Source: an uncultured Bacteroidales bacterium (GTDB lineage: Bacteria; Bacteroidota; Bacteroidia; Bacteroidales; Bacteroidaceae). From it: a stretch of 39,647 nucleotides of DNA. The stretch covers positions 1 through 39,647 of the forward strand of contig CADAVI010000036.1 in NCBI GenBank assembly GCA_902791295.1. The letters run 5' to 3'. Below the pieces are notes generated by a model. That model worked only from the letters and a program-made list of their open reading frames with translations. It searched no databases and had not been told where the DNA came from. Shown here one piece after another: positions 8,658 through 25,221 of the stretch. Numbering within the stretch: the stretch's first letter is position 1; each line of letters starts with the position of its first letter. The translations under genes and the position numbers were made by a program.

Positions 8658-11135
8658 ATGAAGATCAAGACACTTCTTTTGATTTCGTTCCTCACCGTAA
8701 CGCCTTTTCTCTCCCGTGAAGGCAGCCTGATGGCCCAAAGCATGACGGACGATCAGGTTCTGACCTACGTCACCGAGGAAACAGAGAAAGGCACCTCACA
8801 GAGCGCCATTGTCACTTACCTTGTCCGCAAGGGCGTCACCACAGCCCAGTTGCAGCGTGTGCGCCGCAAGGCCGAACGTCTGAAGGCTGAGGAGCAGGCC
8901 GCGCAGAAAGGCCAGATGCTCACCGCCACCGCCAACAATACGGAATTGCGCCAGAAGGAACTCGGCATCACGAGCGACGTTGTGAGTGCCGACTCCACCT
9001 CCAACGCCAAGGACCTCACCAAAGAGATTGACGAAAGCAATTCCCGCAAGGTCTTCGGCCGTAACATATTCTCTACGCAGAATCTCACCTTTGCCCCGTC
9101 GCAGAATATTGCCACCCCCGCCAACTATGTGTTGGGCGCCGGCGATGAGGTCGTCATCAACATCTGGGGCGCCAGCCAGCAGACGGTGCAGCAGACCGTC
9201 TCTGCCGACGGCTACATCGTCATCCCCAATGTGGGCCTCGTGCGTATGGCCGGCCTCACGGTGTCGAAGGCCAAAGCCATGCTGAAGGAAAGGCTCGGCA
9301 AGAGCTACGGCGACAGCCACTTCGAGCTCTCCGTGGGCGGCATCCGCTCCCTGCAGATACAGGTGATGGGCGAAGTGGTGCGTCCCGGCACCTACACGCT
9401 CTCCAGCCTCTCTTCTGCCTTCAATGCACTGTATGCTGCCGGCGGTATCAACGAGCTCGGCACGTTGCGCGACATCCGCGTGTTCCGTCAGGGCCAGAAG
9501 ATTGCCACCATTGACGTCTATGAATACCTGATCAAGGGCCACACCTCCGGCAACGTACATCTGGCCGACGGCGACGTCATCCTGGTGGGTCCCTACGATT
9601 GTCTGGTGGAAATCACCGGCAACGTGAAGCGCCCCATGTTCTATGAGATGAAGCGCACGGAGACGGTGAAGGACCTGCTTGACTATGCCGGCGGCTTCGA
9701 CGGCAAGGCTTATACCAAGGGCGTCCGTCTGAAGCGTTCCATGGGCGCGGAATACACCATACACTCCATTGAGGAATTCCAGATGGGCTCGTTCAAGTTG
9801 GCCGACGGCGACCTTGTGGAAGCCGACGAGAATATGGCCCGCTTCAACAACCTGGTGGAGGTGCGCGGCGCAGTGAAGCATCCCGGCCAGTTCCAGCTGG
9901 GCGGCAACATCCAGAGCGTGAAGGAGCTCGTCCTGGCCGCAGACGGCCTCCTGGAGAGCGCCTACACCGAACGCGCCATCATGCATCGTGAACGCGAGGA
10001 CAAGACCCGCGAGATGACCAGCGTGGACGTGCTCGGCATCCTCAACGGCGAGGCCACGGACGTCCCCCTGCGCAACGGCGATGTGCTCTTCATCCCCAAC
10101 AAGCTGGAGATGCAGGGCGAACGCACCATACAGGTGAGCGGCGAGGTCAACTACCCCGGCGTCTATCCCTTTGCTGAGAAGACCACCCTCAAGGACGTCA
10201 TCCTGCAGTCCGGCGGCATGACACATGCCGGCTCCCTGGCCCGCATTGACGTGTATCGCCGCCTGCGCGATGCCAATGCGTTGGAGGACGGAGCGGCTGC
10301 AGCGAAATCTTTTACCTTTTCCCTTGATGAAAACTACGATTTGACTAAGGACACCGTCTTCGAGCTGAAGCCCTTCGACGTGGTCTATATCCGCAAGTCG
10401 CCGGGCTATGAGGAGCAGAAAAACGTGGCTGTCAACGGCCAGGTCAACTTCCCCGGCACCTATGCCATGACTACGAAGAACTACCGCCTCTCCGACCTCA
10501 TCCGCGACTGCGGCGGTGTGTCGGAGCAAGGCTACGTGCGCGGCGCCAGCCTCGTCCGCACCATGAACGAGGCGGAGCGACAGCAGCGTGACGCCCTGAA
10601 CCTCCGCTCCCAGATTGAGATTTACGAAGACGGTCTGCGCGACGGCAAGGACATGAACATGCAGGTAGCCGACTCTCTGTTGGCCATGAAGTCCGTCAGC
10701 GACAACACCTATCCCGTAGCCATCGAGTTGGAGAAGGCCTTGGCCAATCCCGGCTGCGTTTACGACCTCATCCTGCGCGAGGGCGATGTCATCACGGTGC
10801 CGCGCCCCGAATTCACCGTGAAGGTGAGCGGCGAGGTGATGCATCCCGTCTCCATGGCCTACGAGGAGGGCAAGAACCTCAACTACTACATCCGTCACGC
10901 CGGCGGTTACGCCCGTAAGGCATACCGAAGCAAGGTCTATGGCATTCACATGAACGGCAGCGTGGTGAAGCTCTCGGCCAACTCCGTGCGCGACATTGAG
11001 CCCGGCACGGAGATTGTCGTGCCCTCCAAGGCCGGCAGAAAGGGCATGACCACACCTGAAATCATGAGCATGTCATCCACCGCCGCCTCAATGGCCAGCG
11101 TCATCGTGGCGCTTATGAACATTATCACGAAGTAA
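8658..11135 (+). CDS. Multi-SLBB polysaccharide export outer-membrane protein
   Basis: I start it at 8658, giving about 825 residues with a signal peptide (MKIKTLLLISFLTVTPFLSR). An in-frame ATG at 8619 would add 13 charged residues before that signal and sits inside a hairpin. A helical N-terminal region (about 25-110) is followed by the Poly_export domain (LGAGDEVVINIWGAS, about 157-171). Six SLBB-like repeats follow, each starting with a V-x-G-x-V-x-x-P pattern (for example VMGEVVRPGTY, VRGAVKHPGQF, VSGEVNYPGVY). The C-terminus has one likely membrane helix. This is the long Bacteroidetes form of the Wza-type exporter that passes capsule or exopolysaccharide across the outer membrane. It heads the operon, directly before the Wzz-like gene. 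Confidence 0.88.
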   Translation: MKIKTLLLISFLTVTPFLSREGSLMAQSMTDDQVLTYVTEETEKGTSQSAIVTYLVRKGVTTAQLQRVRRKAERLKAEEQAAQKGQMLTATANNTELRQKELGITSDVVSADSTSNAKDLTKEIDESNSRKVFGRNIFSTQNLTFAPSQNIATPANYVLGAGDEVVINIWGASQQTVQQTVSADGYIVIPNVGLVRMAGLTVSKAKAMLKERLGKSYGDSHFELSVGGIRSLQIQVMGEVVRPGTYTLSSLSSAFNALYAAGGINELGTLRDIRVFRQGQKIATIDVYEYLIKGHTSGNVHLADGDVILVGPYDCLVEITGNVKRPMFYEMKRTETVKDLLDYAGGFDGKAYTKGVRLKRSMGAEYTIHSIEEFQMGSFKLADGDLVEADENMARFNNLVEVRGAVKHPGQFQLGGNIQSVKELVLAADGLLESAYTERAIMHREREDKTREMTSVDVLGILNGEATDVPLRNGDVLFIPNKLEMQGERTIQVSGEVNYPGVYPFAEKTTLKDVILQSGGMTHAGSLARIDVYRRLRDANALEDGAAAAKSFTFSLDENYDLTKDTVFELKPFDVVYIRKSPGYEEQKNVAVNGQVNFPGTYAMTTKNYRLSDLIRDCGGVSEQGYVRGASLVRTMNEAERQQRDALNLRSQIEIYEDGLRDGKDMNMQVADSLLAMKSVSDNTYPVAIELEKALANPGCVYDLILREGDVITVPRPEFTVKVSGEVMHPVSMAYEEGKNLNYYIRHAGGYARKAYRSKVYGIHMNGSVVKLSANSVRDIEPGTEIVVPSKAGRKGMTTPEIMSMSSTAASMASVIVALMNIITK

Positions 11136-21308: not shown

Positions 21309-22249
21309 TGGTTACATCCAGAATATACAACGTTCTCACCTCCAACAAGCTCTTCTTTTCAGGAGTGGCCATCGTCGGCATACTCCTTTCCCACTTTATC
21401 GGAGTAGATAAAGGACACCCCTTCTGGGCGATATTCTATCCCGGGTTTGTCGGGGTGGACATCTTCCTCTTCTACAGCGGTTACGGCCTGTGCCGGTCGC
21501 TGGAGAACAACACACTGAAAACGTTCTACACGCGCCGTCTCAAGCGCATCTATCCCATGCTGGTGCTCTTCACCGTGCTTTCGTATCTGGTGCTCTTCAC
21601 CTTGCGACACGAAAGATTCACCTTCTCGGATGTGCTCTGCAATCTGACCACGCTGAATTTCTGGAATATCGGCGGTTTTCGCTTTGAGTGGTATCTCAGC
21701 TTCATCCTCTATCTCTATCTGCTCTTTCCCCTGCTCTACCGCTTTGTCCGAAGATGTGGCATCGCCTCCGTCATCATCTCGTTTTTCCTGCTTTTCGCCT
21801 TCCTGTTTTTCCATCGGGAGGGATGGTTTTACCAGTGTGCATTTTCCCGAATTCCGATCTTTCTGCTCGGCATCCTGTGCTATCAGCGCAACACGCCCGA
21901 GACCTATGAAAAGGGCTTGTATGTCTTTCTGCCGGCGTTTCTGCTGATAGGGGCATTTTTCTGCATGGGTTTTGTGCAGAAGTTTGAATTGGTCTATATG
22001 TCCGCTCCATTCCTGCTTTGGGCTCTGGAATGGATTTGCCGTCGCTCCATAGAACAACGCAATATTGCTTTTCGCACCTTCTGCTTTCTGGGGCAATACT
22101 CCCTTGAAATATATGTTGCCAATATGCTCATCTTGCAAATCATTCCTTTCATACACATACCCTGCCCTGTAGCAGTGACTTACTTTACATCTCATATCCT
22201 CATAGCCTCCGCATTGGCAGGCGCCAACCGTCTATTCAAAAAACTATGA
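21305..22249 (+). CDS. Membrane acyltransferase family 3 (second copy)
   Basis: The 314-residue protein has about ten membrane helices. VAIVGILLSHFIG near residues 21-33 holds the conserved His. It is followed by GFVGVDIFLFYSGYGL and a YTRRLKRIYPMLV segment, which are the landmarks of acyltransferase 3 (OafA-like) proteins: 'FxSGxxL' followed by 'R-x-x-R-I-x-P'. It probably adds an acetyl or other acyl group to a sugar. It is GC-richer than the first copy at 15595 and differs in sequence, so it is not a recent duplication. It overlaps both neighbours by 4 bp. Confidence 0.87.
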   Translation: MMVTSRIYNVLTSNKLFFSGVAIVGILLSHFIGVDKGHPFWAIFYPGFVGVDIFLFYSGYGLCRSLENNTLKTFYTRRLKRIYPMLVLFTVLSYLVLFTLRHERFTFSDVLCNLTTLNFWNIGGFRFEWYLSFILYLYLLFPLLYRFVRRCGIASVIISFFLLFAFLFFHREGWFYQCAFSRIPIFLLGILCYQRNTPETYEKGLYVFLPAFLLIGAFFCMGFVQKFELVYMSAPFLLWALEWICRRSIEQRNIAFRTFCFLGQYSLEIYVANMLILQIIPFIHIPCPVAVTYFTSHILIASALAGANRLFKKL

Positions 22250-23412
22250 ACATCTGCATACTCACACCGCGCTTTCCCTATCCGCAATTTGGCGGAGACG
22301 CACTGCGCATCAACGAAATAGCCCGTCACCTCAAGCGTCGGGGCCACACGCTCACACTGGTGTCGCTCTCCGACGACGCCAACCCTCCCGTCAATCAGGC
22401 CAAGGCTCTGTACGACAAGGTCTATTTCGTCAAGCGCAACAAACTGATGTCGCTCCTCGTCGGCGCCGTCAATTTTCTTTTGGGCAAACCCATCCAATGC
22501 GGCTACTACTCGTCCGGCGCCTATCGCAAACTCTTCAGGAAAGTGGTGCAGACGGAGAAGCCAGACCTCTACGTCTCCCACCTGCTACGCATGGTGCCCT
22601 ATCTCAGCGAGTTGCATCTGGAAGATAGGTCCGTTATCGAAATGACCGACGCTCTCTCAAAGACCTATCTGCTCTCCTCTAATGCCAAAGGCGTCGGCCT
22701 GCTGAAATACGTATATCTCCTAGAGCAACGGCTCATCGCCAAATACGAACTCGAAGTCACACGCCGTTTCCCCAAAGTGGTGCTCGTGTCGCAGAGCGAC
22801 ATCGACTATCTTCGGGAAAAGCTGCCACAGGAAAGCGCCTCCCTCACGCTGAACAGCAACGGCGTAGGATATATCGAAAACATCTCCACAGCCTACGATG
22901 CCGACAAAATCTGCTTCATGGGCAACATGCGCTCCATGCAGAATCAGGACGCCGCCATATATTTGGCCAACGAGATATTCCCGCTGATTAAACAGAAGCG
23001 TCCCACGGCAAAATTCTATATTGTCGGTTCACTGCCGCCTGCCAACATACAGGCCCTGGCCTCTGACGACATCATCATCACCGGGTTTGTGGACGACCTT
23101 GAAGGGTTTCTTCAGGATGCCTGCCTTCTGGTCGCACCCATAAGAGTTGCCGCAGGAATACAAAACAAAGTGCTCGTCGGTATGGGCTGCGGAGTGCCTG
23201 TGGTCTTAACCTCTCTCATATCGCATGCCATTCCGGAACTCGCCGACGGGACGAACTGCTTCATCCGTGACGGCGAACAGGCATTTGCCGATGCCTGCGT
23301 GAAACTCATGCGCGAGCCCGCACTGAGGAACGACATGGGCCACAAGGGCTACGACATGGTGGTGCGCCATTATTCTTGGGAAGAGAAACTAAAAGGCTAC
23401 GAAACGCTCTAA
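22246..23412 (+). CDS. Glycosyltransferase family 4 (GT-B)
   Basis: The 388-residue enzyme has the GT-B two-domain build. The N-terminus is NICILTPRFPYPQFGGDALR with the Gly pair that binds the acceptor side. The C-terminal donor domain includes ICFMGNMRSMQNQDAAIYLA (about 223-242), IIITGFVDDLEGFLQDACLL and VAPIRVAAGIQNKVLVGMGC (about 295-314); the E-x(7)-E motif of many GT4 enzymes is not obvious here. The family uses nucleotide sugars with retention of configuration. It is the last gene of the operon; no clear terminator hairpin was found directly after it. Confidence 0.88.
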   Translation: MNICILTPRFPYPQFGGDALRINEIARHLKRRGHTLTLVSLSDDANPPVNQAKALYDKVYFVKRNKLMSLLVGAVNFLLGKPIQCGYYSSGAYRKLFRKVVQTEKPDLYVSHLLRMVPYLSELHLEDRSVIEMTDALSKTYLLSSNAKGVGLLKYVYLLEQRLIAKYELEVTRRFPKVVLVSQSDIDYLREKLPQESASLTLNSNGVGYIENISTAYDADKICFMGNMRSMQNQDAAIYLANEIFPLIKQKRPTAKFYIVGSLPPANIQALASDDIIITGFVDDLEGFLQDACLLVAPIRVAAGIQNKVLVGMGCGVPVVLTSLISHAIPELADGTNCFIRDGEQAFADACVKLMREPALRNDMGHKGYDMVVRHYSWEEKLKGYETL

Positions 23413-23540
23413 AAATTTACAGCAACCGATGCAGCCGAGAAAAAAACACCGTACAGAAAAGACTTTCCAATATTTTTTTTCTAAACAATTGGAACCTTTA
23501 CCACTTTTTTGAATGCTGGTGAAAATATCTGGCCAAAAAC

Positions 23541-23572
23541 TTGCAAACTGGTGGGTTGATGTTGTATCTTTG
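23541..23572 (+). promoter_or_regulatory. Bacteroidetes-type promoter in the gene-free region
   Basis: TTGC (23541-23544) is followed after exactly 20 bases by TATCTTTG (23565-23572), a full match to TANNTTTG. This is the best -33/-7 pair in the window. No protein-coding gene lies downstream on this strand before 25357, so it would drive the structured, repeat-bearing region that follows. Confidence 0.6.
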
Positions 23573-23650
23573 CAATTGGAGGGAATGAGGCTCCTTTTCC
23601 CCATGTTTTGACGGGAAAAGGACTTGGAAGGAGAAAGGTGAGGAGGTTTT

Positions 23651-23739
23651 GCAGCGCCCGCTGCAAAATATTCGCACGCCCGCTGCAAGATATTAGCACG
23701 TTCGCTGCAAGATGTTGGCACGTCCGGTGCAAACCCTGT
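23651..23739 (+). repeat. Four tandem 22-bp units, type A
   Basis: Units begin at 23651 (23 bases), 23674, 23696 and 23718, each starting GCA and reading roughly GCACGyyCGCTGC then AAGATrTTr. Units two and three differ at few positions; the fourth diverges at its 3' end. Each holds a small dyad (GCA ... TGC). No spacers are present, so it is not a CRISPR array. Confidence 0.75.
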
Positions 23740-23801
23740 TGGCTCGGCTCACTGTTCCTGTTGGCTCACTTGGTTGTACCTGATGGCTCGGCTCGTTGTA
23801 C
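23736..23801 (+). repeat. Three tandem 22-bp units, type B
   Basis: Units at 23736-23757, 23758-23779 and 23780-23801 all start CTG(t/a)TGGCTC and end in GT(t/a)C. They keep the exact 22-base period of the type A units before them, and share a TGTTGGCnCG core with the last type A units, so both blocks probably came from one repeat. Confidence 0.7.
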
Positions 23802-23846
23802 CGACGCCGTATTGAGTCCCCTTTTTCGATCACTGATTGTTATGCC

Positions 23847-23873
23847 GGGAAGCATCGCGCTTCCCAGCTTTTT
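23847..23873 (+). terminator. Terminator-like hairpin
   Basis: GGGAAGC (23847-23853) and GCTTCCC (23859-23865) form a perfect 7-bp stem around ATCGC. AGC and then TTTTT (23869-23873) follow. It has the form of an intrinsic terminator on the plus strand and would end the candidate RNA begun at the 23565 promoter. Confidence 0.6.
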
Positions 23874-23918
23874 GATGTCGCTTGACGAGTTCTTTCGCAG
23901 AGCCTTCTCCCGCCTTTG

Positions 23919-24027
23919 GCACACTCTTCGCACGTATATGGCACACTCAAAGGGTGTACTTGGGTGTGCGAAGGGTGTACGAAGGGTATACGAAGTGCGT
24001 GTGAAGGGTGTACGAAGTGCGTGCGAA
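23919..24027. repeat. Ten 11-bp units, partly inverted
   Basis: Seven direct units of GGGTGTACGAA type start at 23952 (10 bases), 23962, 23973, 23984, 23995, 24006 and 24017. Three units before them (23919, 23930, 23941) run largely in the opposite sense (GCACACTCTTC type). The inverted parts pair: 23921-23933 with 23966-23978 (13 bp with one G-U), and inside it 23943-23948 with 23952-23957 around AAA. It lies just beyond the 3' end of the minus-strand WecA-like gene and could also act on that transcript. Confidence 0.7.
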
Positions 24028-24039
24028 AGGTCGCTGCCG

Positions 24040-24047
24040 TATCTTTG
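24040..24047 (+). promoter_or_regulatory. Promoter-like -7 box reading into the WecA-like gene's 3' end
   Basis: The bases read TATCTTTG, identical to the box at 23565. It follows the 11-bp repeats directly and points into the 3' end of the minus-strand WecA-like gene, so any transcript would be antisense. No -33 element is seen at the right spacing. Confidence 0.3.
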
Positions 24048-24069
24048 TGTCTGACTGTTCGGCACTGAC

Positions 24070-25221
24070 CTACTCCTCTTCGTCCTTCGCCCCCATGCGC
24101 AGCAGGACCGTCACCACAAAAGCGTAGATGGCAATGTCCACCGCCAGGATGACGGGCAGGAGGAAATGAGCCTGCCACAGCGCAAAGTTGATGCCGCAGA
24201 CCGAGAGGAAAAGCATCATGATGGCAGCCAGAGACCAGTGCATCGAGAGGCCCACGTTCATGAAAAGATGGTGGATGTGGGTGCGGTCTGGCGCAAAAAT
24301 GTTGTGCCCCGTGAGCCAGCGCTGCACGGCCACACGCGCCACGTCCAGCACGGGAATCAGCAGCAGCGTGACAGAGATGAGCATCTGCTCCTCGCCGCAG
24401 TTGACTGGGGCGATGGGGCGGTGCAGACTTTTGATGCTCACATAGGCGCACACATAGCCCAGGAAGAGGCTGCCGGCATCGCCCATGAAAATCTTGTAAC
24501 CGCCGGTGCGACCGAAGAAGTTGAACAGGAAGAACACCGCCAGCGATCCCACAATGGCGGCACAGAGCGACGCAATCATCAGAGCGTCGTTCACGGCAAA
24601 GACGTAGGTGTAGGCCGACAGTATCAGGATGCAGAGGCCGGAGGCCAAACCGTCGATGCCGTCGATGAGGTTGATGGCGTTGACAATCGTCATGATGAGC
24701 AACACCGTGAGCGGATAACCCACCCATAGAGGAATCTCGTGCAGGCCGAAAATGCCGTTGAGATCGCTAATCATCAGGCCGCACAGAGGCAGGAAGAGCG
24801 CCGTGACGGCCTGAATGATGAACTTGTGGACGGCCTTCATGCCGAAGCGGTCGTCGAAGATGCCAATCATATAGATAAGGAAAGCCCCCGAGGCCATCAG
24901 CAGCGTGGAGATGCTGACCGTGATGCCCTCTTGGGCCGTGTCGCCATAGGTGTAGAGCGCGGCGCTCAGGCCGATGATTGCCGCCGGCATGAACGCCATG
25001 CCGCCTAGGCGGGGCACGGGCGTCTTGTGCACCTTGCGCCCGTCGGGCAGATCGTAGAACTTAAAATACTGACAACCCTTAACAATCAAAGGCAGAGCCA
25101 CCAGCGTCACCGCTGCCGCCACGCCGAATGCCGTCACGAAGGCGATTAAAGCCTCGTTCCAATCAAAAGGCACCGAGGAGGGACTGCCGTAAAACAGAAG
25201 AAGGCGTTCGATGGCTATCAC
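24070..25221 (-). CDS. WecA/MraY-family undecaprenyl-phosphate sugar-1-phosphate transferase
   Basis: The 383-residue polytopic enzyme has about 10-11 membrane helices. It carries the polyprenyl-phosphate transferase motifs: PDGRKVHKTPVPRLGG (about 60-75), INLIDGIDGLASGL with its Asp residues, GDAGSLFLGY, and the cytoplasmic DRTHIHHLF loop typical of WecA-type rather than MraY enzymes. The reaction would be transfer of GlcNAc-1-P (or a related sugar) from a UDP-sugar to undecaprenyl phosphate, the first step of glycan synthesis. The start is GTG: no ATG lies upstream before a stop, and the next Met is near residue 75. A perfect 22-base palindrome sits 8 bases before the start. The C-terminus ends GAKDEEE. 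Confidence 0.9.
   Translation of the reverse strand: MIAIERLLLFYGSPSSVPFDWNEALIAFVTAFGVAAAVTLVALPLIVKGCQYFKFYDLPDGRKVHKTPVPRLGGMAFMPAAIIGLSAALYTYGDTAQEGITVSISTLLMASGAFLIYMIGIFDDRFGMKAVHKFIIQAVTALFLPLCGLMISDLNGIFGLHEIPLWVGYPLTVLLIMTIVNAINLIDGIDGLASGLCILILSAYTYVFAVNDALMIASLCAAIVGSLAVFFLFNFFGRTGGYKIFMGDAGSLFLGYVCAYVSIKSLHRPIAPVNCGEEQMLISVTLLLIPVLDVARVAVQRWLTGHNIFAPDRTHIHHLFMNVGLSMHWSLAAIMMLFLSVCGINFALWQAHFLLPVILAVDIAIYAFVVTVLLRMGAKDEEE

What the first reader, a model, noticed from the sequence alone, without database searches (positions are those of the whole stretch)
23541..23873. Candidate new structured RNA built on 22-bp repeats
In a gene-free stretch, a promoter with exact 20-base spacing (TTGC/TATCTTTG) is followed by a perfect 10-bp hairpin, a perfect 9-bp hairpin with a 4-base loop, seven 22-bp units and a GC-rich hairpin with T5. 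That is the full plan of an independent transcript of about 295 bases. I recognise no known RNA family. It sits at the junction between a variable polysaccharide operon and conserved starter enzymes, so it may influence the surface-glycan genes, but that is inference.
Basis: partly seen in the sequence, partly recalled or inferred. Interest (0 to 1): 0.7.

Follow-up and report, generated by a model that had tools for sequence, protein, structure and literature searches.

The report
Dispersed 22-bp palindrome-array repeat element
The stretch is not a one-off RNA gene but one copy of a scattered DNA repeat with a promoter and a row of 22-base units; in relatives the same kind of row often sits right behind genes for a little-understood DNA-binding protein, which suggests what that protein may bind.

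Summary
The features are real: promoter boxes, two perfect hairpins, 22-bp units and a terminator-like hairpin lie at 23541-23873. The reading as a new stand-alone structured RNA is only partly supported. The stretch is a dispersed repeat: at least 5 further places in its own genome, 3 in G034, 7 in G134. Promoter boxes are kept in the 14 copies lined up, but the 10-bp hairpin is perfect only in the window (1 of 9) and folding is no better on the sense strand. One G134 copy holds an intact HU-HIG gene between promoter and array; two other copies hold remnants. Of 15 testable homologous HU-HIG loci, 11 have a 22-bp-family array after the stop and 0 before the gene (gapped background 32 of 168). 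Many of these arrays begin with palindromes 22 bp apart whose sequence changes between species while the dyad is kept, without an RNA-strand signature. Period 22 is a genus signature (28 of 81 arrays; other families 1 of 27). Best reading: a gene-less, dispersed copy of an HU-HIG 3' dyad array, probably acting as DNA. Binding is inference.

The parts
23497..23540 (+). conserved arm upstream of the promoter
   Evidence: aligned with other copies; the match to the G034:C97 copy spans window 23496-23802
23541..23572 (+). Bacteroidetes-type promoter: TTGC, 20 bases, TATCTTTG
   Evidence: both boxes in 14 of 14 copies lined up, spacing 20 in 13 and 19 in one; consensus TTTG / TAnnTTTG seen in one passage of PMC7366714
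23592..23622 (+). spacer with perfect 10-bp hairpin (H1)
   Evidence: perfect in the window copy only, of 9; an alternative pyrimidine/purine stem is shared, support weak
23647..23734 (+). A array: four 22-bp units, the first a perfect dyad TTTTGCAGC-GCCC-GCTGCAAAA
23735..23800 (+). B array: three 22-bp units of the type CCTGTTGGCTCGGCTCACTGTT
   Evidence: (23735-23802)
23847..23873 (+). terminator-like hairpin followed by T5
   Evidence: not above the shuffle mean by itself; present in 6 of 12 copies with an array end (by eye)
23950..24031 (+). adjoining 11-bp / 22-bp array of another sequence; related 11-bp arrays lie upstream of the promoter in several other copies

Best explanation
The window stretch is a dispersed, gene-less copy of a small cassette whose fuller form (seen in G134:C8) is: 11-bp array, promoter, HU-HIG DNA-binding-protein gene, four A units 22 bp apart, B units, terminator. 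Shown: dispersal, shared layout, HU-HIG gene or remnants inside some copies, and the statistical linkage of this HU-HIG subfamily to a downstream 22-bp array. Inferred: the dyads, on one face of the helix because 22 bp is about two turns, are cooperative binding sites for the HU-HIG protein of that array type, so that dispersed copies are chromosomal docking or decoy sites; any RNA from the kept promoter is secondary.
For: Dispersed copies. Pairs with shared flanks: window/G034:C97, G034:C78/G134:C14, G034:C88/G134:C72, G000:C16/G134:C59. Gene inside: G134:C8 intact, PF18291 E 1.7e-12; G000:C38 remnant, 44 aa matched at 86%; RGIG9705 with promoter, a 21-bp remnant (E 4e-5 against 1.5 kb only) and an array match of 89 bp at 81%, in that order. 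Linkage: array of period 11/22/44/66 within 500 bp downstream in 11 of 15 homologous loci, upstream 0 of 15; random ORFs of the genus 31 of 438 downstream, those with a real gap 32 of 168 (Fisher p 2.6e-5, loci taken as independent), Y1 transposase loci 3 of 26. In the 240 bp after the stop of 16 loci (G134:C8 included) the match at lag 22 is 0.45 against a mean of 0.265 (sd 0.034) over lags 8-59; the four-dyad comb at spacing 22 scores 17.75 against 13.90 (sd 0.34, max 15.0) in 200 shuffles, and 13.5-15.1 at other spacings. Dyads kept across differing sequences: 159 of 252 pairs complementary against 107.0 (sd 6.1) with arms shuffled, 0 of 2000 (9 chosen loci). Among genus-wide period-22 units 20 of 25 strong dyads have loops of 0-2 bases, awkward though not impossible for RNA.
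Against: No binding data. A first, coarser test did not single out HU-HIG loci: 12.7 arrays per 100 kb against 13.3 at Y1 loci and 14.9 around another gene. The best generic PF18291 hits show arrays upstream (11 of 27; gapped background 17 of 194, p 6.6e-5; Y1 5 of 26, p 0.08) and not downstream (2 of 30). 22-bp arrays also follow many unrelated genes, and units of other periods are enriched in dyads too (12 of 50 against 4.7 shuffled). The 15 loci are not independent; several share array sequence (by eye), and L296 and L303-L305 show no clear four-dyad row. An unselected sample held 3 HU-HIG-like ORFs, one of them the L307 gene again, too few to test. The leader of gene-less copies is unlike that of gene-bearing ones, so simple gene deletion is not proven.
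Confidence: 0.6

Rival explanations
1. A structured regulatory RNA: the promoter makes a transcript of about 295 bases whose hairpin units act as RNA, for example as a protein sponge.
For: Promoter boxes 14 of 14; terminator in 6 of 12 copies (by eye); the first A unit pairs in every copy, its few changes being G-U; covariation score over named helices reached by 8 of 500 shuffles, leader stem by 10 of 500 with 96.3% of cells paired.
Against: Antisense folds better against its shuffles than sense; sliding the leader stem by one column keeps 2 double changes and a score of 0.204 against 0.210, though fewer cells pair, 82.7%; the raw excess of G-T over A-C, 37 to 17, is what shuffled arms give, 12 against 11.2 (sd 3.9) after dropping two near-copies; no Rfam match.
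Confidence: 0.2
2. A MITE-like or minisatellite-bearing selfish repeat with no cellular role, spread by an enzyme in trans and now decaying, as proposed for BrickBuilt in Porphyromonas gingivalis.
For: Copy number, intergenic placing, copies with internal deletions that keep both ends, presence/absence of 418 bp against 15 bp at one orthologous site with flanks 98.1% and 94.6% identical.
Against: No inverted repeat of 12 or more in 23440-24070 except the central palindrome; no clear target duplication seen; does not explain the downstream linkage to HU-HIG genes.
Confidence: 0.15
3. A REP-type palindromic repeat driven by a Y1 (RAYT) transposase.
For: Short palindromic units in intergenic clusters.
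Against: No Y1_Tnp match in the own genome (85% complete); 77 of 139 genus genomes have none at E 0.001, yet the genus has the 22-bp signature.
Confidence: 0.03

Closest known systems
BrickBuilt MITE of Porphyromonas gingivalis (PMC4596501; outline with abstract, sections 5, 8 and 10, and part 1 of 2 of section 7 read)
   Same: Intergenic, multi-copy, leader - tandem array - tail layout, promoter activity, no Rfam match; same order (recalled). In its Table 1 one of 19 elements lies beside a PF00216 DNA-binding-protein (HU-type) gene.
   Different: Units of 23 bp and not 22; IS5-like terminal inverted repeats, none found here; no HU-HIG gene within the element in the parts read.
REP elements and REPtrons (PMC3733652; passages only)
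   Same: Short palindromic repeats dispersed between genes, some with a gene flanked by the repeat.
   Different: The gene here is an HU-family DNA-binding protein and not a Y1 transposase; head-to-tail units at a fixed 22 bp.
HU-HIG family (PF18291); iteron or centromere arrays of plasmids (recalled)
   Same: All 14 proteins aligned match PF18291 and their profile reaches IHF and HU structures, best E 0.00046. Iterons, as recalled, are also direct repeats of about two turns bound by one protein.
   Different: Chromosomal; the element has no match on plasmids or phages, the protein none on plasmids or viral contigs; the array lies behind the gene.

Membership tests
BrickBuilt MITE | tandem 23-nt unit | tested here: not met
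   period 22
BrickBuilt MITE | terminal inverted repeats of IS5 type | tested here: not met
   only the central palindrome found in 23440-24070 at 12 bases or more
BrickBuilt MITE | leader and tail around the array, intergenic | tested here: met
   shared sequence on both sides of the array in several copies
BrickBuilt MITE | target site duplication | tested here: inconclusive
   one presence/absence site, 418 bp against 15 bp, where a bare 11-bp array remains
Independent structured RNA | conserved promoter | tested here: met
   both boxes in 14 of 14 copies lined up
Independent structured RNA | strand-specific structure or covariation | tested here: inconclusive
   weak covariation in a leader stem; antisense folds better than sense; no G-U signature in dyads
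Independent structured RNA | a transcript | not testable with these tools
   no RNA data held
Known Rfam RNA family | match to a covariance model | tested here: not met
REP / RAYT | Y1 transposase in the genome | tested here: not met
   0 matches in the own genome, which is 85% complete
HU-HIG 3' dyad-array module (defined here) | dyads 22 bp apart behind an HU-HIG gene | tested here: met
   for G134:C8 and as an average over 16 loci; not clear in L296, L303-L305
HU-HIG 3' dyad-array module (defined here) | HU-HIG gene in the window copy | tested here: not met
   no gene between promoter and array; the ORF through the array has no Pfam match

The most novel reading that the evidence does not exclude
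A chromosomal self-specific system: each HU-HIG protein of this subfamily reads a dyad array encoded right behind its own gene, gene and array diverge together, and gene-less array copies such as the window's spread through the genome as docking or decoy sites. This would be a lineage-wide, array-based chromatin or silencing code with a 22-bp pitch.
Probability: 0.35. Interest if true: 0.9.

Novelty: new variant of a known kind. Interest (0 to 1): 0.62.

Why it matters
PF18291 matches occur in 139 of 139 genomes of the genus, 1 to 24 each (the same profile also rings in 9 of 14 control genomes, so ordinary HU and IHF are counted in), and what HU-HIG proteins bind is, to my knowledge, not established. 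A subfamily that carries a candidate target array behind its gene gives an immediate, cheap binding test. The 22-bp pitch of intergenic arrays across the genus is a second thing to explain.

Tried and rejected
Coding: the ORF has no Pfam match and no frame is open in all 9 copies. Known RNA: none. Y1/RAYT origin: none in the own genome. Phage or plasmid origin: the 20-mer is absent from viral contigs, no similar DNA on plasmids or phages, no relative of the protein on viral contigs or plasmids; the protein was not sought in phage records. HU-HIG linkage in windows of 1.5 kb either side: no excess; the sharper downstream/upstream test came after that null and after G134:C8 had been seen, so it is not blind.

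What was left out of counts. The 9-copy alignment A1 takes the gene-less copies with promoter and array, not C38, C16, C10, C3, nor G134:C8, C11, C59. Of 19 places, 16 loci were tested; left out were the query locus G134:C8, the G000:C38 remnant and the contig-edge piece G034:C81; L308 was dropped from the 15 for having 22 bases downstream. leave out L296, L303-L306 and L308 (no clear row of dyads, or too short); one search also drops L300 and L301 as near-copies of L298. Y1 counts use 26 of the 30 loci fetched. One search scored at most 4 candidates per genome, so W-family sequence in 3 of 139 genus genomes is a lower bound.

Not followed: of 40 stretches with the 20-mer, 32 lie outside Bacteroidales, many in Limnohabitans and Comamonadaceae. 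Literature: searches gave no paper on such arrays in this genus or on HU-HIG with arrays; of their hits I saw only listings, and passages of PMC3733652 and PMC5771137; the library holds open papers only.

Full report
What is there. In register there are four A units (23647-23734), the first of which is the 9-bp hairpin, and three B units (23735-23800). The neighbours are a glycosyltransferase (22246-23412) and a glycosyltransferase family 4 enzyme, WecA-like by recall (24070-25221, minus).

It is a dispersed repeat. The own genome (G000) holds five more places: C59, C38, C16, C10 (partial) and C3 (promoter end only). Two other species of the genus hold it: G034 (C78, C88, C97) and G134 (C72, C14, C8, C5, C37, C11, C59, the last two lacking inner parts), besides a G134 site with only the 11-bp array. 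By contig name and length these are the MAGs RUG598 and RUG12976 (RUG for rumen, recalled). Four pairs of copies share flanks, among them the window copy and G034:C97, which keeps order and orientation to the WecA-like gene with about 1.5 kb more between. At G000:C59 418 bp are present where G134 has 15, between flanks 98.1% and 94.6% identical; G134 keeps a bare 11-bp array there, so loss in G134 is as likely as gain in G000.

RNA or not. Both promoter boxes are in 14 of 14 copies lined up. The 10-bp hairpin is perfect in 1 of 9. A different leader stem pairs in 96.3% of cells and has 2 pairs with double changes, reached by 18 of 500 shuffles; a slide of one column gives the same number of double changes but 82.7% of cells. 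Sense and antisense folds give z -1.70 and -2.97. Rfam has nothing. So transcription is plausible and support for an RNA structure is weak.

The gene. In G134:C8 a 211-aa HU-HIG protein (PF18291, E 1.7e-12) lies between promoter and A array, whose first dyad starts six bases after the stop. G000:C38 has a remnant, 44 aa matched at 86%. RGIG9705, titled Prevotella sp. from yak omasum, has promoter, a 21-bp remnant and an A-type array in the same order. All 14 aligned homologues match PF18291 and their profile reaches IHF and HU structures. A winged helix in the C-terminal part is suggested by the Pfam family description; one of 14 members gave a weak Pfam match to a winged helix.

Linkage. Of 16 homologous loci in 13 other genomes, 11 of the 15 with enough sequence have a period 11/22/44/66 array in the 500 bp after the stop and 0 of 15 in the 500 bp before the gene. 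Background, downstream and upstream: random ORFs of the genus 31 of 438 and 17 of 419; those with a real gap 32 of 168 and 17 of 194; Y1 loci 3 of 26 and 5 of 26; random ORFs of other families 1 of 458 and 3 of 440. Generic HU-HIG genes show the reverse, 2 of 30 and 11 of 27, which may be a second arrangement or arrays of the gene before. Printed side by side, most but not all loci show a row of dyads 22 bp apart and then B-type units (by eye); L296 and L303-L305 do not show it clearly. Dyad sequences differ between loci (GGCGGSCGCC, CAGCGGGCGCTG, GCCTWWAGGC, GACGCCCCGGGCCGTC by eye) but recur within one. The comb statistic and the arm shuffles bear this out. G-T mismatches outnumber A-C 37 to 17, but shuffled arms give the same excess, so nothing points to RNA rather than DNA.

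Genus-wide setting. With equal settings, arrays of period 22 are 28 of 81 in 726.6 kb from 38 other genomes of the genus, 5 of 24 in 400 kb of the own genome, 1 of 27 in 676.6 kb from 20 genomes of other families of the order and 0 of 4 in 237.7 kb of far bacteria. An autocorrelation scan of intergenic DNA gives lag 22 in 6 of 11 arrays in other genus genomes, 2 of 6 in the own, 1 of 4 in other families and none of 0 in far bacteria. Units mostly differ between loci; some recur within a genome and a few across species. Of 57 distinct units 25 hold a dyad of 5 or more pairs against 7.6 expected, at most 15 in 300 shuffles; units of other periods are enriched too, 12 of 50 against 4.7, at most 10. 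In 27 genomes with the same gene by DNA match, 9 have a period 22/44/66 array within 900 bp of its 3' end, with unlike units.

Mechanism, shown and inferred. Shown: dispersal, layout, linkage, dyads, period. Inferred: HU-HIG binds the dyads, which face one side of the helix, and dispersed copies such as the window's act as further sites. The most cautious alternative is a decaying selfish repeat like BrickBuilt, for which the parts read describe no HU-HIG link beyond one element beside a PF00216 gene.

Noticed in passing
L004:1787-1966 (G000:C16): A 180-bp MITE with perfect 18-bp inverted ends TTTAACGTGAGTTCGACG sits just upstream of the promoter of one element copy; the ends hold the MITE239 end ACGTGAGTTCGA listed in PMC4596501; the 15-base end occurs nowhere else in the genome.
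   Followed up: partly
window 23950-24031; L124, L125, L127, L128, L112: Arrays of an 11-bp unit (type GGGTATGCCAA) lie upstream of the promoter in several copies, downstream in the window and G134:C5, and upstream of an HU-HIG homologue at G034:C81.
   Followed up: partly
L133-L162: Generic HU-HIG genes have 22-bp-family arrays upstream in 11 of 27 loci and downstream in 2 of 30, opposite to the subfamily studied.
   Followed up: partly
L206:5058, L280:13553, L289:3840: Three species share a similar 22-bp unit (19 of 22 matches between units), so some array families cross species.
   Followed up: no
L197:8231-8298 and 9647-9736: A genome of another family of the order has 23-bp arrays of the type CTCACAAGTTTGTCA, a possible parallel with a 23-bp pitch.
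   Followed up: no
L020-L046: The DNA behind one gene carries unlike 22-bp-family arrays in 9 of 27 genomes and none in others, hinting at fast turnover of arrays.
   Followed up: partly
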